A DNA stretch of 64,000 nt from Oidiodendron maius Zn (lineage: Eukaryota > Ascomycota > Leotiomycetes > Myxotrichaceae), in assembly GCA_000827325.1 (NCBI GenBank), contig KN832884.1:470953-534952 (forward strand), read 5' to 3'. How positions within the stretch are numbered: the first letter of the stretch is position 1; every line of letters begins with the position of its first letter. Positions 1 to 57,097 of the stretch are shown one piece after another. The position numbers were made by a program, and so were the translations under genes. The notes below the pieces were generated by a model. That model had not been told where the DNA came from. It ran no database searches and worked only from the letters and a program-made list of their open reading frames with translations.

Positions 1-1247
1 TGGAATGCATACCACTGCGATGTCAATGCAACAAAGATTTTGGCGGCTGCAAATTATGTCGTAAACCTTGGCCTCAAGGATGCTGGTTATCAATACGTGA
101 ATAGTAAGCTTTATCCACCGACTAAAACTCTGTATGCTGACAATACATAGTCGATGACTGTTGGGAAGTGCAGAGTGGCCGAGATCCTACTACAGGCGAG
201 CTCCTCCCTGATCCCACTACATTTCCAGATGGTATTTCTGGCGTCGCTGATGAGGTTCACGCCCTCGGTTTGAAACTTGGCCTCTACGGAAGCGCGGGCA
301 CTGAAACCTGTGCCGGTTATCCTGCGGAAATCGGTCATGAAAGCCTTGACGCTTCAACTTTCGCCGCGTGGGGTGTCGACTATTGGAAGTACGACAACTG
401 CAATGTCCCGTCAAACTGGACTGACCAGTACGATTTCTGCGTTCCTGACCAATCTGGATCTTTGCCCAACGGAACCTGCCCTGTGACGGACATGACTGCG
501 CCAGTCGGCTATGATTGGAGCACCAGTAACACTGCTAAAAGATACGATATAATGCGAGACGCTCTCCTTGCTCAGAATCGCACGATCCTCTATAGTCTAT
601 GCTGCTGGGGCGATGCGGATGTTGTGAGCTGGGGAAATAACACGGCCAATTCTTGGCGAATGTCCGGTGATATTCAGCCGAATTGGGCAAGTGTTGCCAG
701 CATCATGAACGAAAATTCCTTTTGGCTAGGCTATGTGGACTTCTGGGGACATAACGATGCCGACATGCTTGAAATCGGAAATGGGGATCTCACTATAGAA
801 GAGAATCGCTCTCATTTTGCTTTCTGGGCCGCTATGAAGTCGCCTCTCATCATCGGGACAGATCTCTCAGTTCTTCCGGCGGATCATGTCGATATTCTGA
901 AGAATCCATACCTTCTGGCATTTTCTCAGGACGAAGTTTTTGGCGCTCCGGCCATGCCGTACAAATGGGGTACCAACCCAGACTGGACGTTCAACAGTAC
1001 AAATCCTGCCGAATACTGGAGTGGAGAGTCTACACGAGGAACATTAGTCCTGGCTTTGAACACACTAGACGAAGCTGCAGATAGACAGATTACTTGGAGT
1101 GAAGTTCCGAGTCTCAGTGCAGTGGGCAATAGCTTCCACGTTATAGATATCTGGACTGGAGAGGACCTCGGTTGCATTTCCGACGGCATTACGAAGTCTG
1201 TAGGAGTTCATGATACGATTGGATATCTAGTTGGAGATAGCTGCTAA
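1..1247 (+). CDS. Alpha-galactosidase, GH27 (5' end outside window)
   Basis: Secreted glycoside hydrolase releasing terminal alpha-linked galactose from plant galactomannans and raffinose sugars. The window opens inside an exon (1-103); a 47-nt intron (104-150, GTAAGC..ATAG) follows, then exon 151-1247. Splicing gives YVNIDDCWE, a GH27 signature just after the first strand. KYDNC carries the expected catalytic Asp nucleophile and WRMSGDI the expected acid/base Asp; [11 protein letters not shown] and the TDLSVLP segment are also family-typical. At least 399 residues are present. The start and signal peptide lie upstream of base 1. Several N-x-S/T sites fit a secreted glycoprotein. The reading frame is intact to the TAA stop. 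The family call is firm; substrate preference cannot be read from sequence. Confidence 0.93.
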
Positions 1248-7725: not shown

Positions 7726-9927
7726 ATTGTATGCTCGAGAGCCCTGTCATTGTTGCAAAATCATTACGGTTCTCCGATTTTATGTTGAATTGGGGATCTC
7801 ACCTAATTGAAATATGAGTTCTTGTTTGAAATGTTAGAGAAAATTAGAGAATCGACTCAGAAAAGAATCATAAGCCTGATATTGTGAGTTAAGTAGCAGG
7901 CGATGCTTGAATTTGGCTGTAATTCAGGAGAGCTACTTTAAATGCTATGTCTGTTTTGAACTTGTCATGGTTCATTGGAGAGATCAAGCTCGGAAAGAAA
8001 TATGCTCTTTGTCATTAATTAAACTCTTCTCCGGAGGCTGGCCAACTCAAAAAGGGATATCAATATAAAGCGAAGGAGGTTCCAGGAAAGAAGGAAGTTG
8101 ATTTGCTATTAGCTTTTACACGCTCCGAAGCTATACCCTGGCATCCAGTCAGTGCGAATTGTTTCTTAATTTAGCTGGGCCAACAAGAAGAGCATTATAC
8201 AAGCCCCCTTGTCATAGGGTCTATTAAATATTGCCCAATAAAAAGACTTACTTTCGGTGACTCGGCACATGGATTCAAGACTCGTCAGGCATCAGTGGTC
8301 TCTCGCACAGATACCAAGAGAACCTGTACTGCACTTGGAGAGCGAAGCTTCCTGTATGTCTCAGCCGATTATCTAATTTCATAGGTTGAAGATATTTTCT
8401 TAAGAAAATGGGCTGCAGGATGCATGCCACGGTCGAAGGGATGTTCCATGACGGCCATTGCTCTCCAAGGCATTAATCTTGTTAAGGCTTGCCAAGCCTA
8501 AGGCAGGGGTGCTTAAAACATATGCGTCGCCCACATGTCGATCAGTCATACAAAATGTACATGGGATTCAGCGGTGAAACCCAGCTGGCTGAAAAATAGA
8601 TTGTGGAAGGAGAGGAGAAAAGTCTGCTGTTCCCGGATAAGTTCGTCTGTAGCTAGACATGTAGTAAGGAAAAGATAAGTGGGTAGAAGAGTGCTGTCAA
8701 GAGAACAAAAGTAGAGCTGCTCAGCATAGGTAACAATACATGGGTATCGTCGTTGTCATAATTGTCGCAACTCTTCGTGTTTAATTTCCAGACTTTGACG
8801 ACCCGGTGTCAGATTTGCCTCGGGTTCTGTCGTTTTACCCAACAAGGAAAGGCGTACTAGCTCGGCCCGCGTTCCACCAACCACATATTAACCGGTGAAT
8901 TTTGAGCTGCGCCCCGCAATTCTACACTTTCTCCGGGGAGATTTCTGTGCGCTCTGTAAATAATCTTGAAATCTTTGGGCCAGCATGCGAAAAGCCTTAC
9001 ACCTTCGGAGATGGCCGATAATCTAGCGGGGATGGCCGATCTATCTTGTCAGAGAACTAGCAGCCCCGTTTTCCCTCCGACGAGGCACATGGCCTGCAGC
9101 TATCAATCCGAATGACCTCGGGATGCCACGTTGGCTTGCCTTAGGTGCCCGACATCTGTTTTATCCTTACCTGGGGACCACCACATCAGGCAATGGGCAC
9201 AAGTACAATATTACGGTCGCCTCGCTTTTCGCATCTGTTCATAGGGCAAAGCAGTTTCAAGCTCAACTGATTCACTCTCCAACTTTCCATTACCAATCAC
9301 GTCCTAGGCGAAGAATCACCACGAATTTTCCCGTGTCCATCGACACAGTTACCGTAGGATGGACCATGACCATATTCCGTCCAACTTTTCATTCTCTTGC
9401 CATGTGAATTTGTCTGCCTTGCTTGTCAAGCATCTCCATTGCTCCGTCCTTCGATGCGCGTGATGTCTTGTTGGCCCAAAGGAATGGAATCTCATGCTCC
9501 TTATCTCTGTGTAGCTAGCCAGAGGTTAATCGTTGGGCTTTAGGGCCATTCCGAAAACGCTCTCCGGACTGCAGCAGCATTTGGGCCTCCTTAAGTTGGG
9601 TTTCGACTTGGGCGTAGGGTTACGTCGTAGAGTTACTGGACGTCTCACCACCTTGGGCGAAATGACTTGTGCTACAGTTCTGAGGCAGACAGACTACTAT
9701 CACTGCCACGAATTAATTTAGAGAAGACAATTAGATTCGCTACAAATATGTCTCTAGACTACGTCTCTTCCATCACATAATATATAATAAGCAGAAGCTT
9801 ACTACCATGTGCCTGGACTACGTGACTTGATATTTGTCAGTTCCTCCGTATGCCTCTAGACATACCATCCCAGCCTTGTTTGTTCAAAATGCCTTTGTCA
9901 AATGCCTTTAACCCAGCTATTTAAGCT
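7726..9927. other. 2.2-kb gene-poor spacer
   Basis: No frame with family features in either strand. The 8.75-9.1 kb part is richer in CCGG/CGGGG-like words and looks promoter-like, but no adjacent start was found. Open frames near 9123-9407 and 9533-9721 lack codon structure or recognisable motifs. Confidence 0.45.
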
Positions 9928-12180
9928 ATGCCTGCAGATACACACAACGCATGCCGTGGAGCCCGGCAGTGTTCATGGCCGGCACTGTTCACACAAAGAA
10001 GGGAATTTGACGGAAAGGCAGAAAATACAACTTACATCGATTTTGTCCGGTCTCAGTCTAGCAATGGCAAGGAAGCGGAGAATGACGATGAAGAATTTGG
10101 AGAGAATGTGGATGAAGATGAGCATGAGAGTGATGAGGCTGTAGAACAAGATGGGTACAATGAGAGTGAGGAGCAAAATCCAGTCAAAGTTTTCATGGAA
10201 GGATGTTTTGGCGAGCAGAGGAAGTTGAAATACCACGATCAAGTTGATCAGGTATTAGGATTTTGTGACTGCAATGTAGGAAATGCACAAAAGCATGTTG
10301 CTTTACTAGACGACAGATGCAAGGGCGACTGCCGCTCTGAGCCACGGGGGTACAGCAGACCCTACCTGGGACCATTAACCGCACCAGGGTTGCAAGCGGA
10401 GTTGGAGAGAACGGTAATTTATCCTCAAGCTGCGCATTGGACTCCGAGTTGATATGTTTAATAGCGGTTCAAAGATCCTGACAAGGATTTCAATGAGAAA
10501 GTTGACGCCGAGAGGCGATTGATGTGAGTGGTCTGAAACCCGAAAGTACATCTTTGCCCGTGACTAATATTTTTAGATACATAACGGATTTGGATCCATT
10601 GTCTATCCATGCACTTCTAACCACGGCACCAACATCGCAAGCCCAAGTCCTGAAAGATCTCATATACAGGCATTTGATGGGCGAACTATCTCTCGGTGTG
10701 GATATTCCTGTAAGTTAAGGCCGCATAACTGAGGCAAAAATTTACCACCCCTGAAGCTAATATTATCAACGTAGTCGCAAGGATTCCGGAACTTTACCTT
10801 ACACTGCAATATTCCTTATTATGTGCTTAAATCGCACAAAGAACTCTGTAGGGATCACCGCAAAAAGGCCAATGGCGAACCGCTAAGGCAGTCATGGAAG
10901 TTTCCTTCAACCTCCAGAGAAGCACAGACACCAGAATCCACAGGCAACAGTGATTGTGTATATGAGGCACATGTCTCGATCACAGTTACTGGTATAGACC
11001 GATCGGTGTGGGTTGCATATGGGATTGTCGACACGTACTTTGACACTACACAGGACAGCGTGGATGTATATCACCAGCAGAAAGGAATGCGTAGAGGACG
11101 GGCCGATCCACTCGGATGTGGGTATATTGATGGTGATCAGCCTATTTGGGCACCGAGAGAATACTTTTTGAAAGTTGTGGAAATACGTATCAAGGATGTG
11201 GTGAGAGAATGGAGCGGGATTGTTCGCCGAATGCAGATGGAGATCAAACAGTGCGTACGCGCGAGTTATTGACCAAAATTTGTGAAATGGATAACTGACA
11301 TTGGGAAGTAACAGGTCTAGGAAGAGCAGCTTCTCACTCTTGTCTGGCGATCCAAAAACCAGACGTAACAAGCGACGGGGTGCCACGACATGGATTTCTG
11401 ATATTATGGAAATCTTAAGAGACTTCAAGGAGATTTTGTCTAGATATGACCTGGTTTGGGAGGCGTTCAATCGCCAGGCGATCGACCGTTTTATTGATGC
11501 AGAACCGTCCAAACTAAACAACTATGTTGAAGCTATCGAAATGTCATTTGGAGAGCTTCGAGGCTTCCTCCGGACAGTAGAGGGTATGATAAAGGAACTC
11601 GCTCAGGATTATCCCCAAGGTGTATGTTTAAATCGAACAGCATCTCCGATTCCCGAAATTGATAGGCTAATTAAAACAGCTCCGTGGTCAACTCCTCCTC
11701 GAAAACAATGAGGCTGCTCTCTGCCAACAGATAAGCGCCGACCGTATTCAAGTCTTGACATATTTATCTATGGTAAGCATCGCCGAATTTCAATTTAGAT
11801 AGTACAGACATGTGCCACGCAAAAACTGCAATACTAACTACTCTGATGCCTAGGCTTTTATCCCCTTAATTGTCGCATCATCCTTGTTCTCAATGCAGGG
11901 TGTTCTACCGTTCACCTCAAACTTCAGACATTTTACTCTCGTGCTGGTGGCCCTATCAATCTTTATTATGGGTACCCTGATAGTTCACTTTAACTGGGAG
12001 TTATGTCAACAAATCTTTGGGTCTTTATTCTCGGCCTGGAAACAACGAGCCTCAGTAGCCATGAAGCGACCACTCTTCTTTGGAGAGTGCAGAACTACTA
12101 TTGATATAGAAGCCCAAGTGGAGCAAGGTGGGATATCCTCTAATGGGCTTGGTGCTGGGCATCAGTTGGATCTTACGTGA
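9928..12180 (+). CDS. CorA-like fungal membrane protein
   Basis: Predicted 626-residue protein from seven exons: 9928-10413, 10465-10523, 10577-10709, 10775-11250, 11315-11621, 11680-11772, 11854-12180. All six introns (51-81 nt) keep phase. An acidic N-terminal stretch precedes a central region with RRLIYITDLDP and NFTLHCNIPYYVLKSH, found in a large family of uncharacterised filamentous-fungal proteins. A helical section follows, then two C-terminal membrane helices (about 512-534 and 544-566). The helix pair resembles the CorA/Mrs2 layout, but the loop after the first helix reads SMQ rather than the GMN of Mg2+ channels, so ion transport is unproven. The first exon start is the least certain part; an upstream exon is possible. 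Confidence 0.75.
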
Positions 12181-40974: not shown

Positions 40975-41766
40975 CCTCCACCTTTACCTTTACCTTTACC
41001 TTTACCTCTCCTTCTATTTCCCTTGTCCTTTTGTGGTACCGAGGATGCGGGTCGCAATGTTCTGGTGCAACAGTCTCTCGTATAATTATTTTCGGGCGGT
41101 TTCACGATCTGCTGACGAGACTAAGGGTGGGGCCTAGATTTTGCCACTGGGGAAGAGAAAGAAGGAACGAGGATGGACGGGGAGCGAAAAGGGATGGATA
41201 TTGAGATGTAGTAAGTGGACGTGCTTGTTTGGCGACATGCTGGCTACAATTTTTCCCTATATTATATTTTTGGTACCATTTTTACACTTTTTATTCTTCC
41301 TTTCCTCGGTCCTTGCATCGCCCCGCCAGGGGTTCTCAGCTGATTACGCCCTGCACCCCGTGGAATTTTATACTCTCACATCCGTCTCTACAGCTCCTCC
41401 TTTCTTCTCAACCTAGATTTCCACCAACACCTTCGTTTCATCCTAATATTTGTTCCTTGACCTTTTGGCATTGTTGGTCGCCAACGGCTGGTGCTGAACT
41501 GCCAAAGCCTCTCCTTAAAGTCTCAATTGTTGTTCTTCACCACTCGCTCGCGACCACATTCACCTGCATCCCCCATACTCTCGCCATCCCCACTCTGCGA
41601 ACCCTACTACGACCATTCCAACAAACCGTTGGTTCGAGATCTTCACTCCAAGATCCTCTTTGTGCGCAACCCCCGACGCTGATCGTCGCCCTCCTCCTCC
41701 GGCACTCCCGCATGTAACTTCGACCTCTTCCTCTTCTCTCTTCTGTACGGCATCTCCACATCAGAC
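40975..41766. promoter_or_regulatory. Divergent promoter of PLP-protein and MscS genes
   Basis: Pyrimidine-rich on the plus strand, particularly after 41260, as in many fungal 5' UTRs. Four tandem CCTTTA units lie at 40981-41004, just upstream of the PLP-protein start. No coding frame of quality; those at 41141-41717 are low-complexity pyrimidine translations. Confidence 0.45.
40981..41004 (+). repeat. (CCTTTA)4 microsatellite
   Basis: Four exact hexamer copies, 7 bp outside the start codon of the minus-strand PLP-homeostasis gene. Confidence 0.9.
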
Positions 41767-44672
41767 ATGTCCCTCCGCTCCCCTAGAGCAAGCGGATTCC
41801 ACCAACTCCCCCTCGACCACACTCGCTACGACGATATGAACTACGAGACAGATATTCCACTCACGAACGTGCGGACGGCGGGCTCGTCTACTGGCGGGCG
41901 TAGGCAAGGCGACACCATCGCGCAGACCATGTCCCAGGCGCCCCTGACCGAGGAGAAGAGCGGGCTCTTCAAGCGCGGACCTGCTGGACGGCGGAAGACA
42001 AAGGGGATTGAGAGAAAGGGCACCAATGGGGAGGAGATGCACGTCAACTCCCTCGGCCGCATCTACCACAAGATCATCAACTTCTCAGTCGTAACGCGGT
42101 ATCTCGTTTACGTGCTACCAATTGCCTCCCTCATCGCGGCCCCCATCGTTATCTATGCCATTCTGAAACCCGACGCAGAGTTCGCTAATACGGGCGTTCG
42201 GGTGTACCTCTTCTGGACCTGGATCGAGATCGTCTGGCTCTCGCTCTGGGTCTCGAAGCTGGTTGCCAAGACCGTCCCTTTTCTATTCATGTTTTTATGC
42301 GGCGTTGTGAGCTCCGGCACGAGAAAATATGCCCAGATCCTGAAAGCGGTCGAGATACCACTGAGCCTAGTTGGCTGGGCCGTGACCGGCCTGGTTACCT
42401 TCACTGCGCTCACGGCCTCCCATCTCAACTTCGACACCCAACCTGGCTGGATCGGTGTTATGAAGAAGCTCCTCGCTCCGGCGCTGATCGCTGCCCTTAT
42501 CTATTTGGGAGAACAATTAGTCATTCAGCTGATCAGCGTGAATTACCATAGGCGATCATTCCATGGCCGGATCAAGGACTCGAAACACGCCGTGCACCTT
42601 ATAGGACTGCTTTTTGAAGCTTCTAGGACGCTGTTCCCTATGTACTGCCCGGAGTTCGAAGAAGAGGATTATGTGATTAATGATAGTATCGAAGCCATCG
42701 TGGCCAAGAATGTGGGACATCATATGGGACATCATAAATCCGGGTCTCTAAACCCCGTGAGGCTCATCGGCAACGTGGGACGCATGGGAGATAAAGTGAC
42801 GTCTGTCTTTGGGAACATTGCTTCCGAGATCACCGGGAAGCACGTCTTCAATCCCAATTCCGCCCACTCGGTCGTCGTGGAAGCGCTGGAGAAGACAAGA
42901 TCGTCTGAAGCACTGGCCAAACGATTGTGGATGTCATTTGTGGTTGAGGGGAAGGAGGCGCTGTATCCCGATGATATCAGAGAGGTGCTCGGCCCGGCGA
43001 ACAGCGAGGAGGCCGATGAGGCCTTTGTTGCTCTTGACACGGATGGGAATGGGGATATCAGTTTGGACGAGATGATTATGAAGGTCATCGAAATTGGAAG
43101 GGAGAGAAAGGCAATCGCGTCAAGCATGCGGGATCTGGGACAGGCCATTGGAGTCTTGGACCAGATTCTGACTGTTATCTTGTTTGTCATTATAGTCTTC
43201 ATCTTCGGTAAACCATACTTTTTCTTGGCCGCGCAAGATGTTTATTTCATTACTGACTATTCTCAGTTGCCTTCCAGAACACGAACTTCGTCACGACCCT
43301 CGCAACTGCAGGTACAACCTTGCTCTCTCTCTCCTTCGTCTTTGCTGTCACTGCGCAAGAATTCCTGGGATCTTGCATCTTCCTCTTCGTGAAGCACCCG
43401 TACGACGTTGGCGACCGCGTCGACATCACCGGGTCCTCCACGGCACAGAGCTTGGTAGTCGAGCAAATCTCCCTGCTCTACACCATCTTCAAGCGGATCG
43501 ACAATATGAAACTCGTGCAGGTCCCTAACATCGTGCTCAATTCTCTCTGGATTGAGAACGTGACTCGCTCCATAGCCATGATGGAACAGCTAGACATGTA
43601 CGTCTCTTTCGACACCTCTCTTGAGGACATCGAACTGCTACGCTCAGAGATGGAGGCCTTCGTCCGACACCCGGACAACGCGCGCGACTTCCACCCAGAC
43701 ATGGTCCTCGAGGCAACGGGCATCGGCAATATGGACAAGCTGCAACTTAAGATCGAGATCCGGCACAAGTCCAACTGGCACAACGAGACGGTACGCGCGG
43801 CACGTAGATCGAAGTTCATGTGCGCCCTTGTCCTCGCCCTTCGTAAGATCCCAATCTATGCCCCTGGCGGAGGCACTGAGACGCTCGGCGGGCCTAATAA
43901 CCCTGGATACTCCGTCTCGGTACCAGATGCCTGGGCCGCAGAAGCTCGAGAGAAGGCCTCGACAGCCAAAGAAGCTAAACGCCTTGTCCCTACAACCGCC
44001 CGAGCCCCCTCAATGCGCAGTAACAAGTATGACAGCACTCTTGGTCCCGTCCCAGAAGAAACTGCGGCCTCCGCACTCAACGCTCGCCGCCCGACGTTCG
44101 ATGCAGGGTACGACACTCTTATGCGCACGACATCTGCAAACTCCCGTTCCGATGATATCTCGCGGGACGATTCCCCCGGCCCGAAACGCTCAATGGACAC
44201 TTCCGACCCTTCGCTCATGACACGCAAGAGCACTCGCGGGAGGCGCAAACGTGGAGACATAGTGCCTACGCGTGCTGCCCCCCCAGCTGGCCCAGGACCG
44301 GCCTTCTCCCTAACGCAACCGAGTCCGCAACCGAGTCCCCGCCCAAGCCAACAGCAGGAGTATATGAGCCCTAGGGTAGGCGATGAGGAAGCGGAGGTAG
44401 GGATACATGAGTTGAGTGGACGCGGAAGGGAGGAGTTGGATTATGAGACGTATCGCGCCCAGCATGCGATGGGTGCCAGTCAGGGCCAGGCATTTGTGAG
44501 GTATCCGGGACAGGACGAGCAGATGCAGAGGGAGGAGCAGCAGTTGATGCCGACTGGGGGTGCGAGTGTTGCAGGAAGCCCGGTGACGCCGACGCAGAGA
44601 GAACAGACGAGACTACAGAGACTAAGTCTCGGGTTGGGGAATATGGAAGATCAGGAGGAGGGGTTTCTGTGA
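41767..44672 (+). CDS. MscS-type mechanosensitive channel with EF-hand
   Basis: 948 residues, exons 41767-43207 and 43267-44672 (59-nt intron). Belongs to the eukaryotic MscS group typified by fission-yeast Msy1/Msy2, which sit in ER or plasma membrane and release ions and regulate Ca2+ under hypo-osmotic shock. A polar N-terminus is followed by about four membrane helices from residue 110 onwards (YLVYVLPIASLIAAPIVIY and others). An EF-hand loop DTDGNGDISLDE lies near 424-435, with all Ca2+ ligands. Further membrane helices lead into the pore and MscS beta domain (CIFLFVKHPYDVGDRVDI). The last 250 residues are disordered, Pro/Ser/Gln-rich. The frame is intact and the usual order is kept. Confidence 0.93.
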
Positions 44673-48628: not shown

Positions 48629-50026
48629 CTAGCTCGTTATAAAATCGTAGAATTTGTGAGCAAAGACTTTACTCGGGACTTCTATAACTCGATGAAACAC
48701 TTCTGCAGCAGGGACTACAACGGCCAAGCAGGTGATCAATGTCACCGTGGCCGAGCCTGGAAAGGATATGCCATTGTCGCGGTGTAACTTGGAGAACACT
48801 TTGATTCCAACAATGTAGATCATGGTAGATTGGATGAGGAAGTAACCTGGTGGTAAGTTAGTAAAAATGCATCGCGAGTGTCAAAATAACTTACTTAAGG
48901 ATCTCTTGCCTAAAAAGACGAAAACTTTATTGTCGAAGATGCGTTGTACAACGTCGTAGCTCTCCAGTAAGAAGAAGAAACCGACTAGAATAAGATAGAT
49001 ATCTCCACGCGCAGGCGAGTGATTTGTCAAGTATTCATAGTTCAAACCGCCAGTATAGTATAGCCCACTATGGTACTCGTATTCTTTCTCAAGGAGGTCA
49101 GGGCGGAAATCGATCCAGAGATACTGCATCAGATACCCCGCCACCATAAGGAATCCAGCCGGAAGCCACACGGGCAGCCGGAAAGGTCTCCCATCGGCTC
49201 GTCGAAGGCGGGACATTGGGATGCTAATGGGAATACCACGCTGGGCAGCGGCTTTGAACTCCATCGTGATAACTATATCGCAAAAAAGCAGCCCAGTGAT
49301 TGTGTACCAGGCCCATGAATCGCACCACCACGCAGCCAACACGAAGAAAACGGCACCCTGTACCCGCCATTTCTTTCTTGTATATGGGATGATAACCATT
49401 GTCATGTAGACAGTATAGCTCTGCATGTAGACTGCAGTGATTATCCATAGCGTCTGAGAGGGAAAGGCCGTGCTGCCGGCTTGGATGGAGTAGTTGTGAG
49501 TGGTCCAAAATATGTTGAAGACAGAATTAAAGTACGCTAAAGCGTTGGGCAGGAAGTACGGGACTTGCATCGAGAAGTTATTCGTTCTCGTCTTGAAGTT
49601 ATAAATTTCTTGCAGCTCGCTTTGGGTCATAGAGCCTTTGGCAAGGGCAAGAGCAAACGCGACAGGGAACCATAGCGTGATTCCTCTACAGAGGACAGAC
49701 TGTGCAATGCGTTCTTTAGAAGGGTTCTTGATGAATGGGATGGCGATGGAGCGTGCAGACAGGAAGATGATTGCGCCGTAGAGGAAAGACTCGTTCCAGA
49801 AGAGGACCGAGAGGGTCTTCCTGATCATCACTTCGTAGAACTTCCCATTTGGATTTGCGGAAGCGGCGACTGTGGTAGGAACGAAGGTCTGGAGGAACAC
49901 CCAGAGGAAAGTCTCGATGACTAGCAATCCCCGGAAACCAAGGAGATATTGCTGATCATAGACGGTTGGTGGTTTGAGGCTCGCAGCCTTCAGGAGTAAT
50001 TGGGGAATACCCGTTTGGACACCCAT
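48629..50026 (-). CDS. Membrane acyltransferase-3 family protein
   Basis: 449 residues, exons 50026-48895 and 48846-48629 (48-nt intron). Multi-pass protein of the Acyl_transf_3 fold, about ten helices. Members move acetyl or other acyl groups onto sugars or lipids at membranes. The opening QYLLGFRGLLVIETFLWVF parallels the LDGLRGLA start of the family and keeps the Arg. Further signs are RSIAIPFIKNPSKERIAQS, LWFPVAFALALAKGS and the large LWIITAVYMQSYTVYM segment. It resembles the acyltransferase half of the fusion protein at 53921, with the same wide loop before HSGLYYTGG. The upstream neighbour in the same orientation is a GT2 synthase, suggesting acylation of its polysaccharide (inference). 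No separate signal peptide. Confidence 0.82.
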
Positions 50027-51145
50027 CCTGAAATCTCAGATATCTGAGCGGAATATTTTGAAAGGCTCAGAACTCTTGGGTTAATTAGGCTGGTCAGACC
50101 TCTCGCCAGCAGGGACGGCTTGATTCTGGACAGTGGCGTGATGTTCTCTCCAGGAGCAGAACAATGCCACGTCGTAGCGCAACAGAGTTTGCATTAATGA
50201 TACTGTAACAAGGCTCTGCTGATAAACTTTCACCCAGGTCGGCCCACGTATCGAATCCTTCGAGCCCGGCCTGCCCGGAATTCCCAGATTGGAAGCAGTG
50301 AAAACCCTAGCTGCTCAGCACCAACTCAGCACCAACACGATTCAAGTAATGCAGCTGCTCATCAATACGCGGAAGAGAGTACTGTCCCATTTGAGGAGCA
50401 AAGAATCCCTACCACCTACATCGGTCAAATATTCCCGCATCCGCTATTAAGCTATGACATCCCAAGAGGTTATCGCGCAGGGGTAGCCTGCTCTGCCAAG
50501 GCGGCTGCCTTTGTTAGCACCTTGTTAGCAAAACGCCATCAACCAGCCTCTTGCGGCTACCGTCCGGGCGATCCTACTGCAGGTCCGGTTGGGCTGAGTG
50601 ATATCGCAGTGGATCTCGTATCTGCTGGAAGAAGGTAGGTACTTTAAGGAGGTTGGAGATACGGGAGATCGGTTAAGGCTGCAATCTGGCATGCGACATG
50701 TTTAAACATGTGATGGAAGGTTATGGTTAAATGACTTGTCAAATTAATCTATATCTTGTCATCCTTTATCAATCTCGGACGGCATTCTCCTAACAATACT
50801 GGCTCTGTTGCTGTGCCTCTTATGACTTTCTATCCTTCGTATTACAACCAGGGCAGGTGTGGAGCGAAATGAAGTACCGGTAAGGCAGTCCGATCTGTAT
50901 TCTTTCCAGTGTCCCCATCTGTACATGCAAATCAAGGAACGGATCTTAACGCCAAATAGACATCCCATCCCGACCCTATCAAAAAAGCAAATGCTCGGCG
51001 TCAGCATCGGCATATGAGGCTTACCTACAACGCGCGACCCACACACCCGAAAAGAGCCCCTGCAGACGCTACAGTGAGCAGAGGACCCACCACGAGGAGA
51101 TAACAACGAGATAACTAGTCGACAATTCGTACGCAACTTCTCTGT
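50027..51145. other. Promoter of the acyltransferase and GT2 3' region
   Basis: No gene supported; the open frame 50759-51136 (-) has no family features. Confidence 0.5.
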
Positions 51146-52747
51146 TCATGTTCGTGGCGTGGGGTTCCACTTCATGTACTTGCTAACTTGTCGGGCATGC
51201 CCAAAAAGGCCCATAACAGCTGTGAGCACCAGCTGCGCTGGGAAGGTCATGGTGAAGACGATGATCATCCACCACCGAATGAACTCAGATCGCACGCGGA
51301 AAGTAATGTACAGGGTGCCGAAGAGGGAAACCAGACTGTAGTAGATTTAGTATGTTTCTTGTAGAGCGATGGGCTGAAGAACTCACCTAAGGATGAAGAG
51401 CCACCATGCAACGGGATATTGAAAGAAAACAAGTCGGTACAATTGCGAACCGGATTTGGGAAATTCCGTGACCACGATGCTGAAGACGAGGCAGAGGTAT
51501 TGCGTGATAAGGTAGTAACTCGACTCGCGAATGTAGAGAAGAGAAAGTAACCCAAATCGCTGAGTAAGAGTTCGGGTCTTTCCCTCAACCGTGCTCCGTG
51601 ACCAGACCAGATTGATATGTCGAATGCTGGCTTGGATCCATCCCTGAGACCACCGGAGGCGCTGCTTCCAGAACGCTGTCAAGGTGACAGGAGCGAGCTC
51701 GAAAGAGACAACATTTAGATCATGAACGGCCTTAGCGCCGTGTCCAAATGCTCGCAGAGCGGAATCGATGTCTTCAGTGAGCATATTTTCGTCCATTCTC
51801 AGTTCCTTGAGCAAGGATGTCCTCCAGAATCCATTGGAGCCGCAGAAAAGGCCAAAATCGAACATTGCTGAGCGCCCTGGATGGGAGACAGCGTAGATTT
51901 TATCGAATTCCACTGCGATCATGGCAGTCAAGGTGTTTTCATTTGCATTGAAGACGACGCATCGTCCCTGAACAATGTCGATGGTGCTATTGCCCGCAAA
52001 GCGTTCCATGGCCCATCGAGGTCCATACGGATGAGGGTAATGATCGCAATCAAAAATGGCAGAGACATCTGCTCTGGTATTGAGAGTGCAGTAGTAATTG
52101 ATATTATCTGCTTTTGATTTTGAATTGGGAACCTTGATAACTCTCAATTCTGCGCGCTTCAGCGCCAGATCGTGCATCTGGGCCTCCAAAGGTTCAATCG
52201 GGAAGGGAGTATTGTAGAGTACTGTGATGCAAAGTTTATCTCTTGGGTAGACAACTTTGTCGAGAAGATAATAAATCCTATCCATGATAATGCCTTGTTC
52301 ATTTGGCAAATAGGCGACGATGATGATATCCAGATTTTTGAGTTCCGAATCTGGCGTTGGAAACGTCCAATTCTTCTTTGCAACTTTGGCGGCTACCTTG
52401 TTTGCATCGTGGCAAGCCCCAATGCTCATCATGGCCTCGATGACTGTTGCGCCTGCGATATAGGTATTCGTCATCAGATAGACGAACCAAAACACCTCAG
52501 TGATCCCAGAAGTTGCAAGCATGTAAATACACACAGAAAAGATAAAGTAAGAGGCTACTAGAAGGAAGGGCGTCCAATCTTGAATCCCATCCGAGGCAAC
52601 TGTGATAGCCCAGATGATGTCCTTGTACGTTCTTTTGAGGCCAGAACCAAGTCGGCTTGCCCGTGATCGGTGCTGCTTTGGAACCTCAAATATCCCATCC
52701 TCTGATCCGCTGGTTATTGTCTCGGGAATTTCTTTGTCTTTCTCCAT
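51146..52747 (-). CDS. Processive glycosyltransferase family 2 (cellulose/hyaluronan-synthase-like)
   Basis: 516 residues, exons 52747-51387 and 51335-51146 (51-nt intron). A plasma-membrane synthase that would polymerise a UDP- or GDP-sugar and extrude the chain. All four processive-GT2 signatures are present: KADN (Asp 214), DCD at 233-235 for metal/nucleotide, TED at 324-326 for the base, and QRLRW at 362-366 for chain binding. Two helices lie before the catalytic domain (about 58-105) and three or four after (from 388). It is close in layout to fungal GT2 proteins needed for hyphal growth on surfaces, and unlike chitin synthases (no myosin or cytochrome-b5 parts). It is divergent from the GH16-acyltransferase gene. 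The polymer is unknown. Confidence 0.92.
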
Positions 52748-53920
52748 GTCTTAAAATTTGCAAGGTCAAATTGACGATAGAAGAACAATGCAGAGAATAA
52801 ACATTCACAGCAGTAAAGCAGAGAACTATAAAATCACCCACCCACCTAGTCGCCTACCGAGGTCTGCCTCTTCAGCACATACCTTGACAAGGGCCATGAC
52901 CCAGTCGACCAGTCAAGGTAATCAATTGGGAGCAGCTGAAAGAGCACGCTCCGCTTCCAGGGTCAAACATAGGACGTGAATATCACTTAAACCGGAGAAG
53001 GCAAGCCAGCACCCGCTAATGCTCTAGGACATGCCACCTGTGGTAGCCCCCTGTCAAGACTGCAGTTCCATGGATGGCTTGGTTGCCTTCGTCAAATCCT
53101 ACGAAACGTGCAGGAGAAGGCTCCGACCTGCTGTCTGCCACATTGACTTGTTGGCCGAGCATGGGACGGAGGTTGCTGCATGCAGAAGTTAGCGCGAAAG
53201 ATAAACTCTGCGAGGGCCGCCAGGCCTAGTACACGTGTATGGCTTACATTATGAGCTTACTCATCGGGGACATACCTATCACAGAATAGCCAGCAAAGGA
53301 TCGACCCGCCGGAAACTTCGAAGGAGGAGGTTTTTTGAGACACAGGAAAAGGGTCCGAGTATTTATGCCTGAGGCAATAAGGCTCCCAAACTCTATCGCC
53401 AAGCACCGGCACGGGATTCTCGGTCGGCTCGCGACATGTTCTCCAGTATACCCTCGGTATCACAGCTGCCAAGGGACGCTGAAGCGCCGTAGTAAGGGAG
53501 ATAGCTGATCAGTGGGCCATTTGCGATAGAGAACACAGCCCGCATCGTAGGCTGACTCCGGCCTTCCGCTTCTGTCTCATTTCTTCTTTTTGGTCCCGCT
53601 AAATCCGTGCTCCTTGCAAGCTACCTGCCGGTACTCAAAGGTGGCTGTGGTACTAGGTGCCAAGGACAATGGACATGGGAGTCAAGCAAGGTCTTGATAC
53701 CCTGGTAAAGATTAATAGATATCCTGTCGCCGCAAACTAGCTGCTGATAGCGATGCTGGGATGGTGCTCTGTCGAAAGTCCGTTTCGTGGTGTTGTATTC
53801 AACTCTCTACTCTCCTTTCACCTGTCCTCCTCTCTTACCAGACTCGAGTGCAGTAATTTCAGGCATGCCACCTTGATTTAGTTTATGCTCACGCCTCTGT
53901 TGTTTTGACTGACATTTACA
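52748..53920. promoter_or_regulatory. Shared promoter of GT2 and GH16-acyltransferase genes
   Basis: 1173 bp between the two start codons, with no coding frame of quality. Sharing one gap would permit joint regulation; no specific factor site was recognised. Confidence 0.45.
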
Positions 53921-56900
53921 ATGAACGTCCAAACATTCCTGCAACTTCTGTTCCTTCTTTCTTTTTGGCCACGCACTCAGGCAGCCCTGGAGCCCTCGAA
54001 GGATGTCTCCAGCTGCACATGTGGCTTTTATAACCAGGAGGCCAATATGGTCTTTACGGAAACTTCAATCGTGTACTTCAATGAAACTGATGGCCTCCCG
54101 GCAGACTATATTCCAGAATCTTTTGAAAACAAGTATGACCGGGGCTGGAATGCTATATACCGGCAGGGCGCAGCTGTGGAAAATGTTGCAATCGTTAATG
54201 ATACCACCGCCCGAAATCTCACCAGCATGGCACTTTATTGTGATCCAGCAGACGACAACGGATTGGTTATGGGAGCAAGTATGCGTACTGCCCGCCAGGA
54301 TATATTTTTTGGATCCTTTCGCGCGTCGATGAGAGCACCACGTCAATGGCTTAAGGGCTCAGCTGTGTCGATGCTGTTGAAGCACAATGTCACGGAAAGT
54401 TGGGACATCGATGTAATGAATACCGACAACAGCAGCTGGGCATGGGTTACCACACTTGCAAAGGGCCAGTTCTCGGATCTCTGGATGGGGACGAACTTTA
54501 CCAATCTGACTGAAGAGGGCTTGAATCCTTGGTACTATACAGAGTACCGCGTGGACTGGACTCCGGATGCTATCACGTACTATATTGGTGGGCAACAGCA
54601 CTATGCCTATACCAGAGCGTTGAATGGTTCTTTACCAAGCACTCCCGCCCCAATTCAACTACAGCACTGGTCTCTAGGTAACGTTTACAATACTCAGGGA
54701 CCACCTGGTCAGCAGTCTGAAGCGAATGTTGCGTGGACGAGGCTCTTTTTCAACTCGTCTGTCTGGACGACGGAGCAGCGGGAGGCTTTTGATGCTAGGT
54801 GTACGCCAGCTGACGCCTGTCAAATGGATGACAATACGCTCCGTGGCTCTTCAGCGTACCCAGTTGAGGCACTTTCTCCCTGGCAGCAGGCTCAGCCAGA
54901 GTACAAGATTCTTTGGATACCTCTTTTGATTGACATTGCCTTTGCCTCCCTGTTTGTTATTCTCACTACGAAGACGCTCTGGCGGAGATTATCCTGGGGA
55001 AAGCTTTATTTATTCTTAGGGATCACCAAGAGAAAACAAGAGCCATCTGGCCAAATGTCCCGGTTCGCGGCAAAATCTTCCGGCGACAGTTCTCCTAAGA
55101 CCAATTCAATCAGTTCTGTCCACCCAACTAGCGACAACGGCGGTGTACGTCTGCCAAGAGATACTTCTTATTCTAGTTTTGCTCCGCCAACTTATTCAGG
55201 GACTCAAACCCCTCTACCGCAATATCAGACACCCGCCGCTTCGCTGTGGCCGTCACGAGTCAATTCAACAGACGATCTGCCTATTGATCCACTACCTCGT
55301 AGAGCATCTGTGCAGTCAGACCTATACATGGCAGGTTCGCAAAGCCCTCATTCCAGCACTCGGCCCCCCATTCAGCCAGGAGGGTATCAGCACTACAGCT
55401 CTTCTAGCAATCCCTTTTTGCTAAGATCGGAGTCTGGCCCCTCCACGCCGGCACCTGAAGCGATCCCCCCACTTCCAACTATTCCTGGCATCCTATCGCC
55501 TACGCCATCATCATCAAATGTAATCACAACAACTATTCACCACCCGACGTCAGGAGAGAAGACATCCCAAGTCACTATTGCAGAAGAAAGCAAGCCTGGA
55601 GTCACAACGATCAGTGCTGTAGATCCCGCTAAGGGAAAGGGCGGGATTCCTCCTCAGCAGCGTGTAGACTATCTCGCAGGATTCGTCGGCATGAGTGCCA
55701 TTCTCGTGACTATGAATCACTTTGGCTTAACTTTCTGGGCTGCAGTTATCATTCCTTCCGTGCGTCCACACTACTCGAGTGAGATTTGGGCTCGAAAGAC
55801 GATTGCTTCCTATTTTCTTGATCCTCTGTGGATCGGACCATTCCTCATGATTTCCACCCGATTTCTTGTATCCAACTATCTCAGAACCGGTAAACTAGAT
55901 AACATGGCCCAAAAGATCGTCGCTCGACCATTTCGACTTTTAACTCCCGTTGCCTCGATTGCTATGTTGGAATACTTCCTTATGGATGCGGGAGCACTGA
56001 ATTGGCTTGAATACCTTCCTTCGGTTACGTGGTCTCCGTGGCCCTTCACAGCAATTGCTGCAAATCCTGGTATTTATATCAGTGAGATTATTCAACTTGC
56101 GTTCTTAATACCAAATGCTGCTCCCATGATCACATACAACTACTGCACCGGTGTTCTCTGGACTATCCCCGTTCAACTACAAGGAGCATGGCAGACTTTA
56201 CTCGGCCTCATTATGATCAAAGAATGCAAAACCCCTTGGAAGCGATTCGCATTATACACCTTCTGTATTGCTAATCACTGGTACGGGCTGTCATGGGGAA
56301 GCTATTACTATGCTGGTGTGCTACTCGCTGATCTTGACATAACTTTTAAGTACAGGAAGTGGCTCCATGCTAGACCTTTTGTGTACTACCCCTTCTTGTG
56401 GTTTCTGATATTGCTCGCCTTAGGCGGATTTACCATTGACATGGTCACGCAGTGGACAGGAGTTCAATATGCCGAGGTCGAATATGGTTGGCATCCCGAC
56501 CCTGGGAGTGGGCTTACAATCTCACAGTCCAGCCAGAGCGTATATCCAGACTACTTTATCCCGCGACTCAATGCTCTGTTGACTACTGTTGCCATGCAAA
56601 CAATTGTCGAGATCAACCCGACCGTCCAGAAAGTTCTCTCTACCAAGATCTTGCAGTTCCTGTTCCCACACATCTTCACCATTTACCTCATCCACGGCTT
56701 CATTTTCTGGTCGATCGGATCTTGGGCGATGGTTGGGTTCTTCTCGCATGGGCTACCTTACTGGCTCTGCATTCTGCTTACATTTATTGTCTGCTACGGG
56801 ACACTCTTCGCCAGCTTGCCTATCCTTACACCGCCTATTGAGGCATTGGGAAAGAAATTCACACTCAGCTTGTGGGAAAATGCGAGCCAAGAACCACCAC

Positions 56901-57097
56901 CCCGGAATCCCACCACGTTTCCCTTTGGTACGGATTTGCTGAAGAGAGATGTTGACTCTGCTAGGGTTATCCATGGCCAAGTCCCACCGCAGGAGAAGAG
57001 CAGGCAGTACCCTGAAGAGAAGGACGGAAAGCAAAAAGAAAGTGAAGCAGAAACCCAGAAAGGCGGGATCGTTGAGGTTATCAAAGAGACTGAGTAG
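53921..57097 (+). CDS. GH16-like domain fused to acyltransferase-3 domain
   Basis: 1058 residues, one exon. Signal peptide 1-21 (cleaved near TQA). A GH16-type jelly-roll occupies about 30-315, with many N-glycosylation sites and WTPDAITYYIGG and the DACQ end typical of fungal laminarinase-like members. The catalytic E-x-D-x-E becomes S160-W-D-I-D164, so both glutamates are replaced. A membrane helix (about 329-352) is followed by a Ser/Pro/Thr-rich cytosolic linker (360-580) and the second part (about 588-1000), a ten-helix Acyl_transf_3 domain opening VDYLAGFVGMSAILVT. The C-terminal tail is charged. The topology puts the GH16 part outside the cell and tethers it to an acyl-transfer channel. 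It is divergent from the GT2 synthase, so a joint role in a surface glycan is inferred. Confidence 0.9.
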   Translation: MNVQTFLQLLFLLSFWPRTQAALEPSKDVSSCTCGFYNQEANMVFTETSIVYFNETDGLPADYIPESFENKYDRGWNAIYRQGAAVENVAIVNDTTARNLTSMALYCDPADDNGLVMGASMRTARQDIFFGSFRASMRAPRQWLKGSAVSMLLKHNVTESWDIDVMNTDNSSWAWVTTLAKGQFSDLWMGTNFTNLTEEGLNPWYYTEYRVDWTPDAITYYIGGQQHYAYTRALNGSLPSTPAPIQLQHWSLGNVYNTQGPPGQQSEANVAWTRLFFNSSVWTTEQREAFDARCTPADACQMDDNTLRGSSAYPVEALSPWQQAQPEYKILWIPLLIDIAFASLFVILTTKTLWRRLSWGKLYLFLGITKRKQEPSGQMSRFAAKSSGDSSPKTNSISSVHPTSDNGGVRLPRDTSYSSFAPPTYSGTQTPLPQYQTPAASLWPSRVNSTDDLPIDPLPRRASVQSDLYMAGSQSPHSSTRPPIQPGGYQHYSSSSNPFLLRSESGPSTPAPEAIPPLPTIPGILSPTPSSSNVITTTIHHPTSGEKTSQVTIAEESKPGVTTISAVDPAKGKGGIPPQQRVDYLAGFVGMSAILVTMNHFGLTFWAAVIIPSVRPHYSSEIWARKTIASYFLDPLWIGPFLMISTRFLVSNYLRTGKLDNMAQKIVARPFRLLTPVASIAMLEYFLMDAGALNWLEYLPSVTWSPWPFTAIAANPGIYISEIIQLAFLIPNAAPMITYNYCTGVLWTIPVQLQGAWQTLLGLIMIKECKTPWKRFALYTFCIANHWYGLSWGSYYYAGVLLADLDITFKYRKWLHARPFVYYPFLWFLILLALGGFTIDMVTQWTGVQYAEVEYGWHPDPGSGLTISQSSQSVYPDYFIPRLNALLTTVAMQTIVEINPTVQKVLSTKILQFLFPHIFTIYLIHGFIFWSIGSWAMVGFFSHGLPYWLCILLTFIVCYGTLFASLPILTPPIEALGKKFTLSLWENASQEPPPRNPTTFPFGTDLLKRDVDSARVIHGQVPPQEKSRQYPEEKDGKQKESEAETQKGGIVEVIKETE

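What the first reader, a model, noticed from the sequence alone, without database searches (positions are those of the whole stretch)
48629..57097. Candidate fungal surface-polysaccharide locus: GT2 synthase flanked by two acyltransferase-3 proteins, one fused to GH16
Seen: three neighbouring genes encode a processive GT2 (KADN, DCD, TED, QRLRW), a free Acyl_transf_3 protein and a GH16-like/Acyl_transf_3 fusion; the GT2 and fusion are divergent over 1.17 kb. Known: in bacteria, acylated exopolysaccharides are made by loci pairing synthase, hydrolase and membrane acyltransferase; in fungi, an unrelated-to-chitin GT2 is needed for hyphal growth on surfaces. Inference: this is a eukaryotic counterpart that builds and acylates an unknown extracellular glycan.
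Basis: partly seen in the sequence, partly recalled or inferred. Interest (0 to 1): 0.82.

Follow-up and report, generated by a model that had tools for sequence, protein, structure and literature searches.

The report
Fungal gene trio for acylated polysaccharide
Three neighbouring genes in a mould look like a kit that builds a sugar polymer at the cell surface and hangs acyl groups on it; the closest bacterial versions of the polymer-making enzyme mostly sit beside, and once are fused to, the same kind of acyl-adding enzyme, which makes the idea testable.

Summary
The GT2 keeps the catalytic residues of processive synthases, models like BcsA/HAS, and is not the Cps1/ZtGT2-type fungal enzyme. 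Both acyltransferase domains are true but very divergent AT3s, below Pfam's cut-off; neither keeps the full R-x10-H motif. The GH16 domain seems to have lost its catalytic glutamates: a binding domain is likelier than a hydrolase. New evidence: the closest bacterial relatives of this GT2 (up to 47% identity) have an AT3 gene beside it in 69 of 81 loci, mostly one actinomycete operon; in one cyanobacterium AT3 and GT2 are a single protein. The AT3s of fungus, actinomycetes and cyanobacteria fall apart in a tree (moderate support), so the pairing probably arose more than once. No GH16 was found beside the bacterial GT2s examined. Verdict: a PgaC/IcaA-like synthase plus AT3 module in a fungus, a new variant of a known kind; product unknown.

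The parts
51146..52747 (-). Processive GT2 polysaccharide synthase, 516 aa, two exons (intron 51386-51336); 2 N-terminal and 3 C-terminal TM segments by hydropathy around a cytosolic GT-A domain
   Evidence: 48 of 57 columns invariant in 35 bacterial relatives kept, catalytic ones included; model of exon 1, pLDDT 78.6; Foldseek: cellulose, hyaluronan and chitin synthases
48629..50026 (-). Free AT3-like membrane protein, 449 aa, two exons (intron 48894-48847); R of R-x10-H kept, H lost, RxxR half lost
   Evidence: 38.3 bits with own-genome AT3 profile; 60.1 bits to the fusion's AT3
53921..57097 (+). Fusion, 1058 aa, intronless: likely signal peptide, GH16-like ectodomain, one TM (residues 330-348), long low-complexity linker, AT3 domain, charged tail
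   Evidence: 9 N-glycosylation sequons in residues 21-329, 1 in the linker, 1 in the tail
54266..54736 (+). GH16-like domain (residues 116-272); catalytic motif replaced (SWDIDVMN)
   Evidence: 33.2 bits; nearest solved relative: fungal 'probable glycosidase crf1', 6ibu
55628..56890 (+). AT3 domain of the fusion (about residues 570-990); H of R-x10-H and RxxR kept, R of R-x10-H lost
   Evidence: (model, pLDDT 66.6)
52748..53920 (.). 1,173-bp shared upstream region between the divergent GT2 and fusion genes

Best explanation
A fungal surface-polysaccharide module. The GT2 polymerises a beta-linked sugar chain from a UDP-sugar and extrudes it through the plasma membrane (inferred from family, residues and model). 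The AT3 domain of the fusion, perhaps together with the free AT3-like protein, carries acyl groups from cytosolic acyl-CoA to the outer face and esterifies the emerging chain (inferred from AT3 biology and from the GT2-AT3 pairing in bacteria). The GH16-like ectodomain no longer cuts; it holds or presents the glycan to the acyltransferase, as SGNH or NRF ectodomains accompany other AT3s (inferred). Shown here: the gene set, GT2 catalytic residues, AT3 homology, loss of the GH16 motif, and recurrent GT2-AT3 association in bacteria. Not shown: product, acyl group, expression, or fungal conservation.
For: GT2 relatives: tblastn on plasmids gives one outlier, Streptomyces p1, 43.3% identity, E 2e-64, against under 28% for the other 24 of 25 records listed (269 matched). 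A scan of genome contigs found 206 relatives, best 80 kept, 36-47% identity. An AT3 gene lies by the GT2 in 69 of 81 loci; Pfam PF01757 is met by 24 of 24 bacterial AT3s scanned. One cyanobacterial ORF of 1341 aa is PAS + AT3 (90.2 bits) + GT2. Background is low: 10 AT3 matches in 9.9 Mb of S. noursei. In an AT3 tree with 13 unrelated bacterial AT3s as background, the window AT3s fall with the fungal AT3s (SH-aLRT 94), the actinomycete operon AT3s are one clade (99), and the cyanobacterial pair (100) lies apart from them with background AT3s between (85-89), so one inherited operon does not explain the pairing (one search agrees with fewer rows). Catalytic residues of the GT2 are kept. Topology fits: sequons lie in the ectodomain.
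Against: No AT3 was found beside the GT2 in 10 loci of Acidimicrobiia, other Actinomycetota, Comamonadaceae, Acidobacteriota and Armatimonadota, and AT3 is linked in only 2 of 7 cyanobacterial homologues: pairing is common, not universal. Most of the 69 are one actinomycete operon, largely within Streptomyces. Neither fungal AT3 keeps R-x10-H, which 68 of 68 operon AT3s and 8 of 8 own-genome AT3s have. The AT3 model matched no solved structure at E <= 0.001. The window GT2 departs from its bacterial relatives at 9 of 57 columns invariant among them. No fungal relative could be examined.
Confidence: 0.58

Rival explanations
1. Neighbours by chance or by tandem duplication: the GT2 makes its own polymer, and the two AT3-like genes are an old duplicate pair with an unrelated substrate such as a lipid, sterol or secondary metabolite.
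For: The two AT3s are each other's best match among 8 own AT3s (60.1 bits) and sisters in one tree (90, long branches). Given duplication, an AT3 near some GT2 is expected in about 3% of random genomes. AT3s are common in this genome (at least 11 others).
Against: The same GT2 subfamily is beside AT3 in 69 of 81 bacterial loci and fused to it once. None of the 11 other AT3 hits lies within 100 kb of any GT2 hit in this genome. The sister relation dissolves when background AT3s are added. The glycan-related GH16-like ectodomain sits on the AT3 itself.
Confidence: 0.27
2. Pseudoenzyme version: the synthase is active, but one or both AT3s and the GH16 are dead and serve as scaffold, chaperone or gate for the extruded chain.
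For: Catalytic glutamates are missing in GH16 in both registers tried. The free AT3 lacks the His of R-x10-H and one Arg of RxxR; the fusion lacks the Arg of R-x10-H. All four residues are reported essential in bacterial AT3s (PMC9833829, passages).
Against: The fusion keeps the TMH1 His, RxxR and a YLxH motif. GWT1, a working member of the wider superfamily, lacks the catalytic histidine of HGSNAT (PMC12423673, passage).
Confidence: 0.1
3. The GH16 domain is an active transglycosylase or hydrolase of unusual chemistry that trims or crosslinks the new chain.
For: Clear GH16 score (33.2 bits); nearest solved relative is fungal crf1 (6ibu), a Crh-type crosslinking enzyme (type recalled).
Against: The phmmer alignment puts S and D where the two catalytic glutamates stand; the other register gives D and N.
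Confidence: 0.05

Closest known systems
icaADBC / pgaABCD poly-N-acetylglucosamine systems (IcaA/PgaC synthase, IcaC AT3)
   Same: Membrane GT2 whose best NCBIfam match is PgaC_IcaA (58.6 bits), with an AT3 partner; 7 of 7 bacterial relatives scanned also rank PgaC_IcaA first. Two Gram-negative relatives have a PgaA-like porin gene upstream of the GT2 (56.9 and 55.9 bits, below the 366.65 cut-off). IcaC as an AT3 linked to PNAG: PMC12423673 passage.
   Different: Far below the PgaC cut-off (422.3), as are the bacterial relatives. Fungal, not an operon. GH16-like ectodomain on the AT3. No deacetylase or accessory subunit identified (not systematically sought).
Actinomycete GT2 + AT3 operon (L050-L123; no name found)
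   Same: Closest bacterial GT2s; AT3 immediately downstream in most.
   Different: Most of their GT2s have a long N-terminal extension: GGDEF over cut-off in L050 and response regulator over cut-off in L077, weaker traces in L051. Their AT3s are canonical (R-x10-H in 68 of 68) and form their own clade.
Succinoglycan exo genes (ExoH and ExoZ AT3s; exoK glucanase)
   Same: Exopolysaccharide acylated by stand-alone AT3s, with a glucanase-like gene on the exoH fragment (PMC9558356, passages and a reference title).
   Different: Multi-enzyme lipid-linked repeat-unit pathway (recalled), not a single synthase; its glucanase is active (recalled).
Galactosaminogalactan (GAG) cluster of Aspergillus
   Same: Fungal exopolysaccharide gene cluster likened by its authors to ica/pga (PMC4817252, passages).
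   Different: Epimerase, deacetylase, hydrolase, spherulin-like protein and a glycosyltransferase of another family (family recalled); 'acetyltransferase' does not occur in the text. Its genes were not sought in this genome.
ZtGT2 / Cps1 / CpsA fungal GT2
   Same: Fungal non-chitin GT2 thought to make an unknown outer polysaccharide (PMC5653360: abstract, two sections, passages; PMC9500679: one section, passages).
   Different: No detectable similarity: own-genome Cps-like proteins L027-L029 give no BLAST match to the window GT2 at E <= 10 (Cps label recalled).
AT3 proteins with ectodomains (OafB with SGNH; DRD and NRF proteins with NRF)
   Same: AT3 membrane domain joined to another domain outside the membrane core (PMC12423673 and PMC9558356, passages).
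   Different: Here the ectodomain is GH16-like, N-terminal, and joined through a TM and a cytosolic linker; no such fusion was seen in the listings of searches.

Membership tests
Processive GT2 polysaccharide synthase (BcsA, PgaC, HAS, CHS class) | Catalytic residues: K..N, DxD, TED, QxxRW | tested here: met
   K212, N215, D233, D235, T324-D326, Q362, R365 and W366 are identical in all 36 rows of A3; overall 48 of 57 columns invariant in the 35 bacterial rows are kept
Processive GT2 polysaccharide synthase (BcsA, PgaC, HAS, CHS class) | GT-A domain with TM helices and synthase fold | tested here: met
   Model of exon 1, pLDDT 78.6; Foldseek top hits BcsA and HAS, chitin synthases lower
PgaC/IcaA (poly-beta-1,6-GlcNAc synthase) | NCBIfam equivalog cut-off 422.3 bits | tested here: not met
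   58.6 bits; best-ranked model but far below the cut-off
ZtGT2/Cps1 | Sequence similarity to the family | tested here: not met
   No BLAST match at E <= 10 to L027-L029; their Cps identity rests on recalled motifs
Acyltransferase-3 (PF01757) | Pfam gathering score 31 | tested here: not met
   Fusion 10.3 bits; free protein (exon 1) no hit
Acyltransferase-3 (PF01757) | Homology to accepted AT3s | tested here: met
   41.8 and 38.3 bits with a profile of 8 own-genome AT3s, hhalign probabilities 95-99%; best non-AT3 multi-TM ORF 4.7
Acyltransferase-3 (PF01757) | R-x10-H in TMH1 and RxxR in TMH3 | tested here: not met
   Fusion V-x10-H with RxxR kept; free R-x10-V with RxxT
Acyltransferase-3 (PF01757) | AT3 (TmAT) fold | tested here: inconclusive
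   Model pLDDT 66.6; no PDB match at E <= 0.001; one unnamed viral model at probability 1.00, TM 0.46
GH16 | Pfam GH16 score over cut-off | tested here: met
   33.2 bits, cut-off 22
GH16 | Two catalytic glutamates in E-x-D-x-(x)-E | tested here: not met
   S/D or D/N at these places, by register
ica-type synthase plus AT3 system | GT2 synthase gene next to an AT3 gene | tested here: met
ica-type synthase plus AT3 system | Deacetylase and accessory subunit | not tested
   Only selected window ORFs were scanned with Pfam
Conserved fungal gene cluster | Synteny in other fungi | not testable with these tools
   The tool states that the genome has no relatives held

The most novel reading that the evidence does not exclude
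The locus is a eukaryotic counterpart of ica: it makes an O-acylated poly-hexosamine (PNAG-like) surface polymer. That would offer a candidate synthase for PNAG-like antigen on filamentous fungi. The GH16-like domain has become the acceptor-presenting ectodomain of a new AT3 architecture, and the two AT3s, one keeping the Arg and the other the His of the R-x10-H pair, may work only as a couple.
Probability: 0.12. Interest if true: 0.85.

Novelty: new variant of a known kind. Interest (0 to 1): 0.58.

Why it matters
Fungal walls carry polymers whose makers are unknown, and acylation of fungal glycans is little explored. A three-gene locus with a bacterial-type synthase and membrane acyltransferases names candidate genes for such a polymer. 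The recurrent GT2-AT3 pairing in bacteria (operon, adjacent gene, single fused protein) also marks a synthase subfamily in actinomycetes and cyanobacteria, for which I found no name, with a clear prediction: its product is acylated.

Tried and rejected
Second GT2 + GH16 pair at C3:16-23 kb of the same genome: rejected as a copy of this locus. Its GH16 keeps an active-type motif (GEIDIAE), its GT2 has no significant match to the window's (E 0.036), and no AT3-like ORF was found in 40 kb. Scan of genome contigs with the fusion: no relative; of viral contigs with the GT2 alignment: none. tblastn of the fusion's AT3, the free AT3 (exon 1) and the GH16 domain against plasmids: no match up to E = 1. 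Fold of the fusion's AT3: neither proves nor excludes the fold. GT2 tree: the fungal branch is too long (5.5) to say where it joins, so neither direction nor age of any transfer is claimed. Own-genome search with the cyanobacterial AT3: nothing. Literature: the fusion or the trio was not seen in the listings of searches; for the actinomycete operon, one search listed one Actinoplanes paper (PMC13390465) whose passages describe other clusters. The fusion's ATG is at 53921, not 53924.
Full report
Observation. The window lies at C15:470953-534952 of an unnamed 45.9-Mb genome in 58 contigs. The genes are eukaryotic in form, two with a short GT-AG intron. The three genes occur as described. GT2: 52747-51146 minus, 516 aa. 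Free AT3-like: 50026-48629 minus, 449 aa. Fusion: 53921-57097 plus, 1058 aa, intronless. GT2 and fusion diverge over 1,173 bp; 1,119 bp separate GT2 and free AT3. Residues of the fusion are counted from Met1; the queries used lacked it. Searched by protein in their own genome, each matched only itself at E <= 0.01, but that search is coarse: the free AT3 did not find the fusion.

GT2. Pfam gives GT2 families (62.6 bits). NCBIfam ranks PgaC_IcaA first (58.6 bits, cut-off 422.3), then cellulose synthase. In an alignment with 35 bacterial relatives the catalytic positions K212/N215, D233/D235, T324-E325-D326 and Q362/R365/W366 are the same in all 36 rows. Of 57 columns invariant among the 35 bacterial rows the window keeps 48; one of the nine others is only the end of exon 1. 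The model of exon 1 (pLDDT 78.6) matches cellulose, hyaluronan and chitin synthases. It is not the ZtGT2/Cps1 enzyme: the three Cps-like proteins of this genome (L027-L029; label from recalled motifs) give no match at E <= 10. What was read of ZtGT2 and Cps1: the abstract, two sections and found passages of PMC5653360, and one section and found passages of PMC9500679.

AT3 domains. Pfam alone would not call them: 10.3 bits for the fusion and nothing for exon 1 of the free protein. A profile of eight canonical AT3s of the same genome scores 41.8 and 38.3 bits. The fusion and free AT3 match each other at 60.1 bits without composition correction and 47.0 with it. Among 194 multi-TM ORFs no ORF that is not an AT3 scores above 4.7 (the fusion is listed there twice, as window and as L010; entries at 20.0 and 18.9 proved to be AT3s by Pfam, and L134 at 8.3 is part of one of them by position; the free AT3 was not in that set). 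Thirteen genuine bacterial AT3s from elsewhere in the relatives' genomes score at most 30.8, and two of them were not reported at all. R-x10-H and RRxxR stand in 8 of 8 canonical AT3s here, and R-x10-H in 68 of 68 bacterial operon AT3s. The fusion has V-x10-H with RxxR kept; the free protein has R-x10-V and only the first Arg of RxxR. PMC9833829 (passages) calls R-x10-H absolutely conserved and all four residues essential. PMC12423673 (passages) notes that GWT1 lacks the catalytic histidine of HGSNAT. Activity is therefore in doubt, most of all for the free protein.

GH16 domain. It scores 33.2 bits and its best solved match is fungal crf1 (E 0.00047). In the phmmer alignment the EVDWE motif becomes SWDID; read as EIDIME it becomes DIDVMN. 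The MAFFT alignment with own GH16s places a gap there and settles nothing. Both registers lose both glutamates. Nine N-glycosylation sequons lie in residues 21-329 against one in the linker and one in the tail, which fits an extracellular ectodomain, one TM (330-348), a cytosolic linker and then AT3.

Bacterial relatives. tblastn of the GT2 against plasmids matched 269 records. The best is a Streptomyces plasmid at 43.3% and E 2e-64; the other 24 of the 25 listed are below 28%. In that record an AT3 gene overlaps the GT2 end (109.4 bits). A scan of genome contigs with the two-sequence alignment gave 206 relatives, of which the tool kept the best 80. With the Streptomyces record that is 81 loci. 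By an HMM built from 42 of these AT3s, 68 of 81 have an AT3 gene, directly downstream in all but L077, where it begins about 1.5 kb on. L130, a cyanobacterium, has one directly upstream, giving 69 of 81. Of the 12 without, L080 and L117 end at the GT2 and are uninformative. L086, L088, L102, L119 and L124-L129 (10 loci: Acidimicrobiia, other Actinomycetota, Comamonadaceae, Acidobacteriota, Armatimonadota) show none in the flank held, which is short in L088, L126 and L129. Most of the 69 are Streptomyces and kin, one inherited operon. Of the bacterial GT2s scanned whole, GGDEF passes its cut-off in L050 and the response regulator in L077; traces below cut-off appear in L051 and L124, and none in L102 and L119.

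Independent cases. Among 386 cyanobacterial genomes seven have a relative at E <= 1e-25. AT3 is linked in two of the seven: adjacent in L130 (also one of the 81 loci) and fused in L139 (PAS + AT3 90.2 bits + GT2, one 1341-aa ORF). In a tree of 22 AT3s the window pair falls with fungal AT3s (SH-aLRT 96) and the two window AT3s are sisters (90, long branches). With 13 unrelated bacterial AT3s added (35 rows) the fungal grouping holds at 94, the sister relation is no longer resolved, the actinomycete operon AT3s are one clade (99), and the two cyanobacterial AT3s (100) lie apart from them with background AT3s between, at supports of 85-89 and with long branches. The likeliest reading is that AT3s were paired with this GT2 subfamily separately in fungus, actinomycetes and cyanobacteria; the fungal case is the best supported. 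AT3s are sparse in these genomes: 0 to 12 matches per genome in the eight searched.

Product. All seven bacterial GT2s scanned rank PgaC_IcaA first, all far below its cut-off, and two Gram-negative loci have a PgaA-like porin gene upstream (56.9 and 55.9 bits, below its cut-off of 366.65; Pfam PgaA_barrel over cut-off in L127 only). This leans towards a hexosamine polymer but does not show it. GH16 is not part of the bacterial arrangement as far as seen. An HMM from five own GH16s found none in the bacterial ORFs, though it is weak (13.4 bits for the fusion's domain itself). A Pfam search of 16 genomes found GH16 in 8. By coordinates and contig lengths no hit falls in the fetched flanks; for L113 and L129, where contig identity was unclear, no ORF of the reported length lies at the place in question.

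Chance. Random placement of 13 AT3s and 18 GT2s in 45.9 Mb gives an AT3 within 2.9 kb of some GT2 in 2.9% of trials and on both sides in 0 of 20,000. The counts used are lower bounds, and the test is post hoc. If the two AT3s are duplicates the 2.9% applies. The case for a unit therefore rests mainly on the bacterial associations.

Known kinds. The GT2 + AT3 pairing resembles ica (IcaA with the AT3 IcaC; PMC12423673 passage) and, in being a fungal exopolysaccharide locus, the GAG cluster (PMC4817252 passages). A fusion of a GH16-like ectodomain with AT3 was not seen in the listings of the searches made (open-licence full texts only). A PNAG antibody that cross-reacts with Candida is mentioned in PMC7151206 (passages); wider reports of PNAG on fungi are recalled, not read.

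Verdict. Observation confirmed, interpretation partly supported. Most likely a membrane synthase plus acyltransferase module with a non-catalytic GH16-like ectodomain. The decisive fungal synteny test remains to be done.

Noticed in passing
L139:3664-7686: A cyanobacterial ORF of 1341 aa joins PAS, AT3 and GT2 domains in one chain: a single-protein synthase-acyltransferase.
   Followed up: partly
L050:10558-14360 and L051-L123: Widespread actinomycete operon of a GT2, often with a long N-terminal extension (response-regulator or GGDEF-like in those scanned), followed by an AT3 gene; no name found in the one search made.
   Followed up: partly
L127:5185-6792 and L128:5194-6801: PgaA-like TPR/porin genes directly upstream of the same GT2 subfamily in Ramlibacter and an acidobacterium.
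   Followed up: partly
window 50026-48629 and 55628-56890: The two AT3s keep opposite halves of R-x10-H (Arg in the free protein, His in the fusion).
   Followed up: no
L047-L048 (own genome C3:16-23 kb): Another GT2 next to a GH16 with an active-type motif; GT2 without significant match to the window's, no AT3.
   Followed up: yes
L027, L028, L029 (own genome): Three Cps-like GT2s; L028 and L029 are 68% identical (label recalled from motifs).
   Followed up: no
L129:4577-7726 and 9345-11120: A Capsulimonas GT2 of this subfamily sits between a GH35 gene and a RicinB-lectin gene.
   Followed up: no
window 41683-44672: Large membrane protein with an EF-hand-like stretch, possibly an MscS-type channel (recalled resemblance; Pfam gave only a sub-threshold EF hand).
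   Followed up: no
window 141-1244 and 2087-2839: Alpha-galactosidase (melibiase) exon and an alpha/beta hydrolase exon at the window's start; no link to the trio seen.
   Followed up: no
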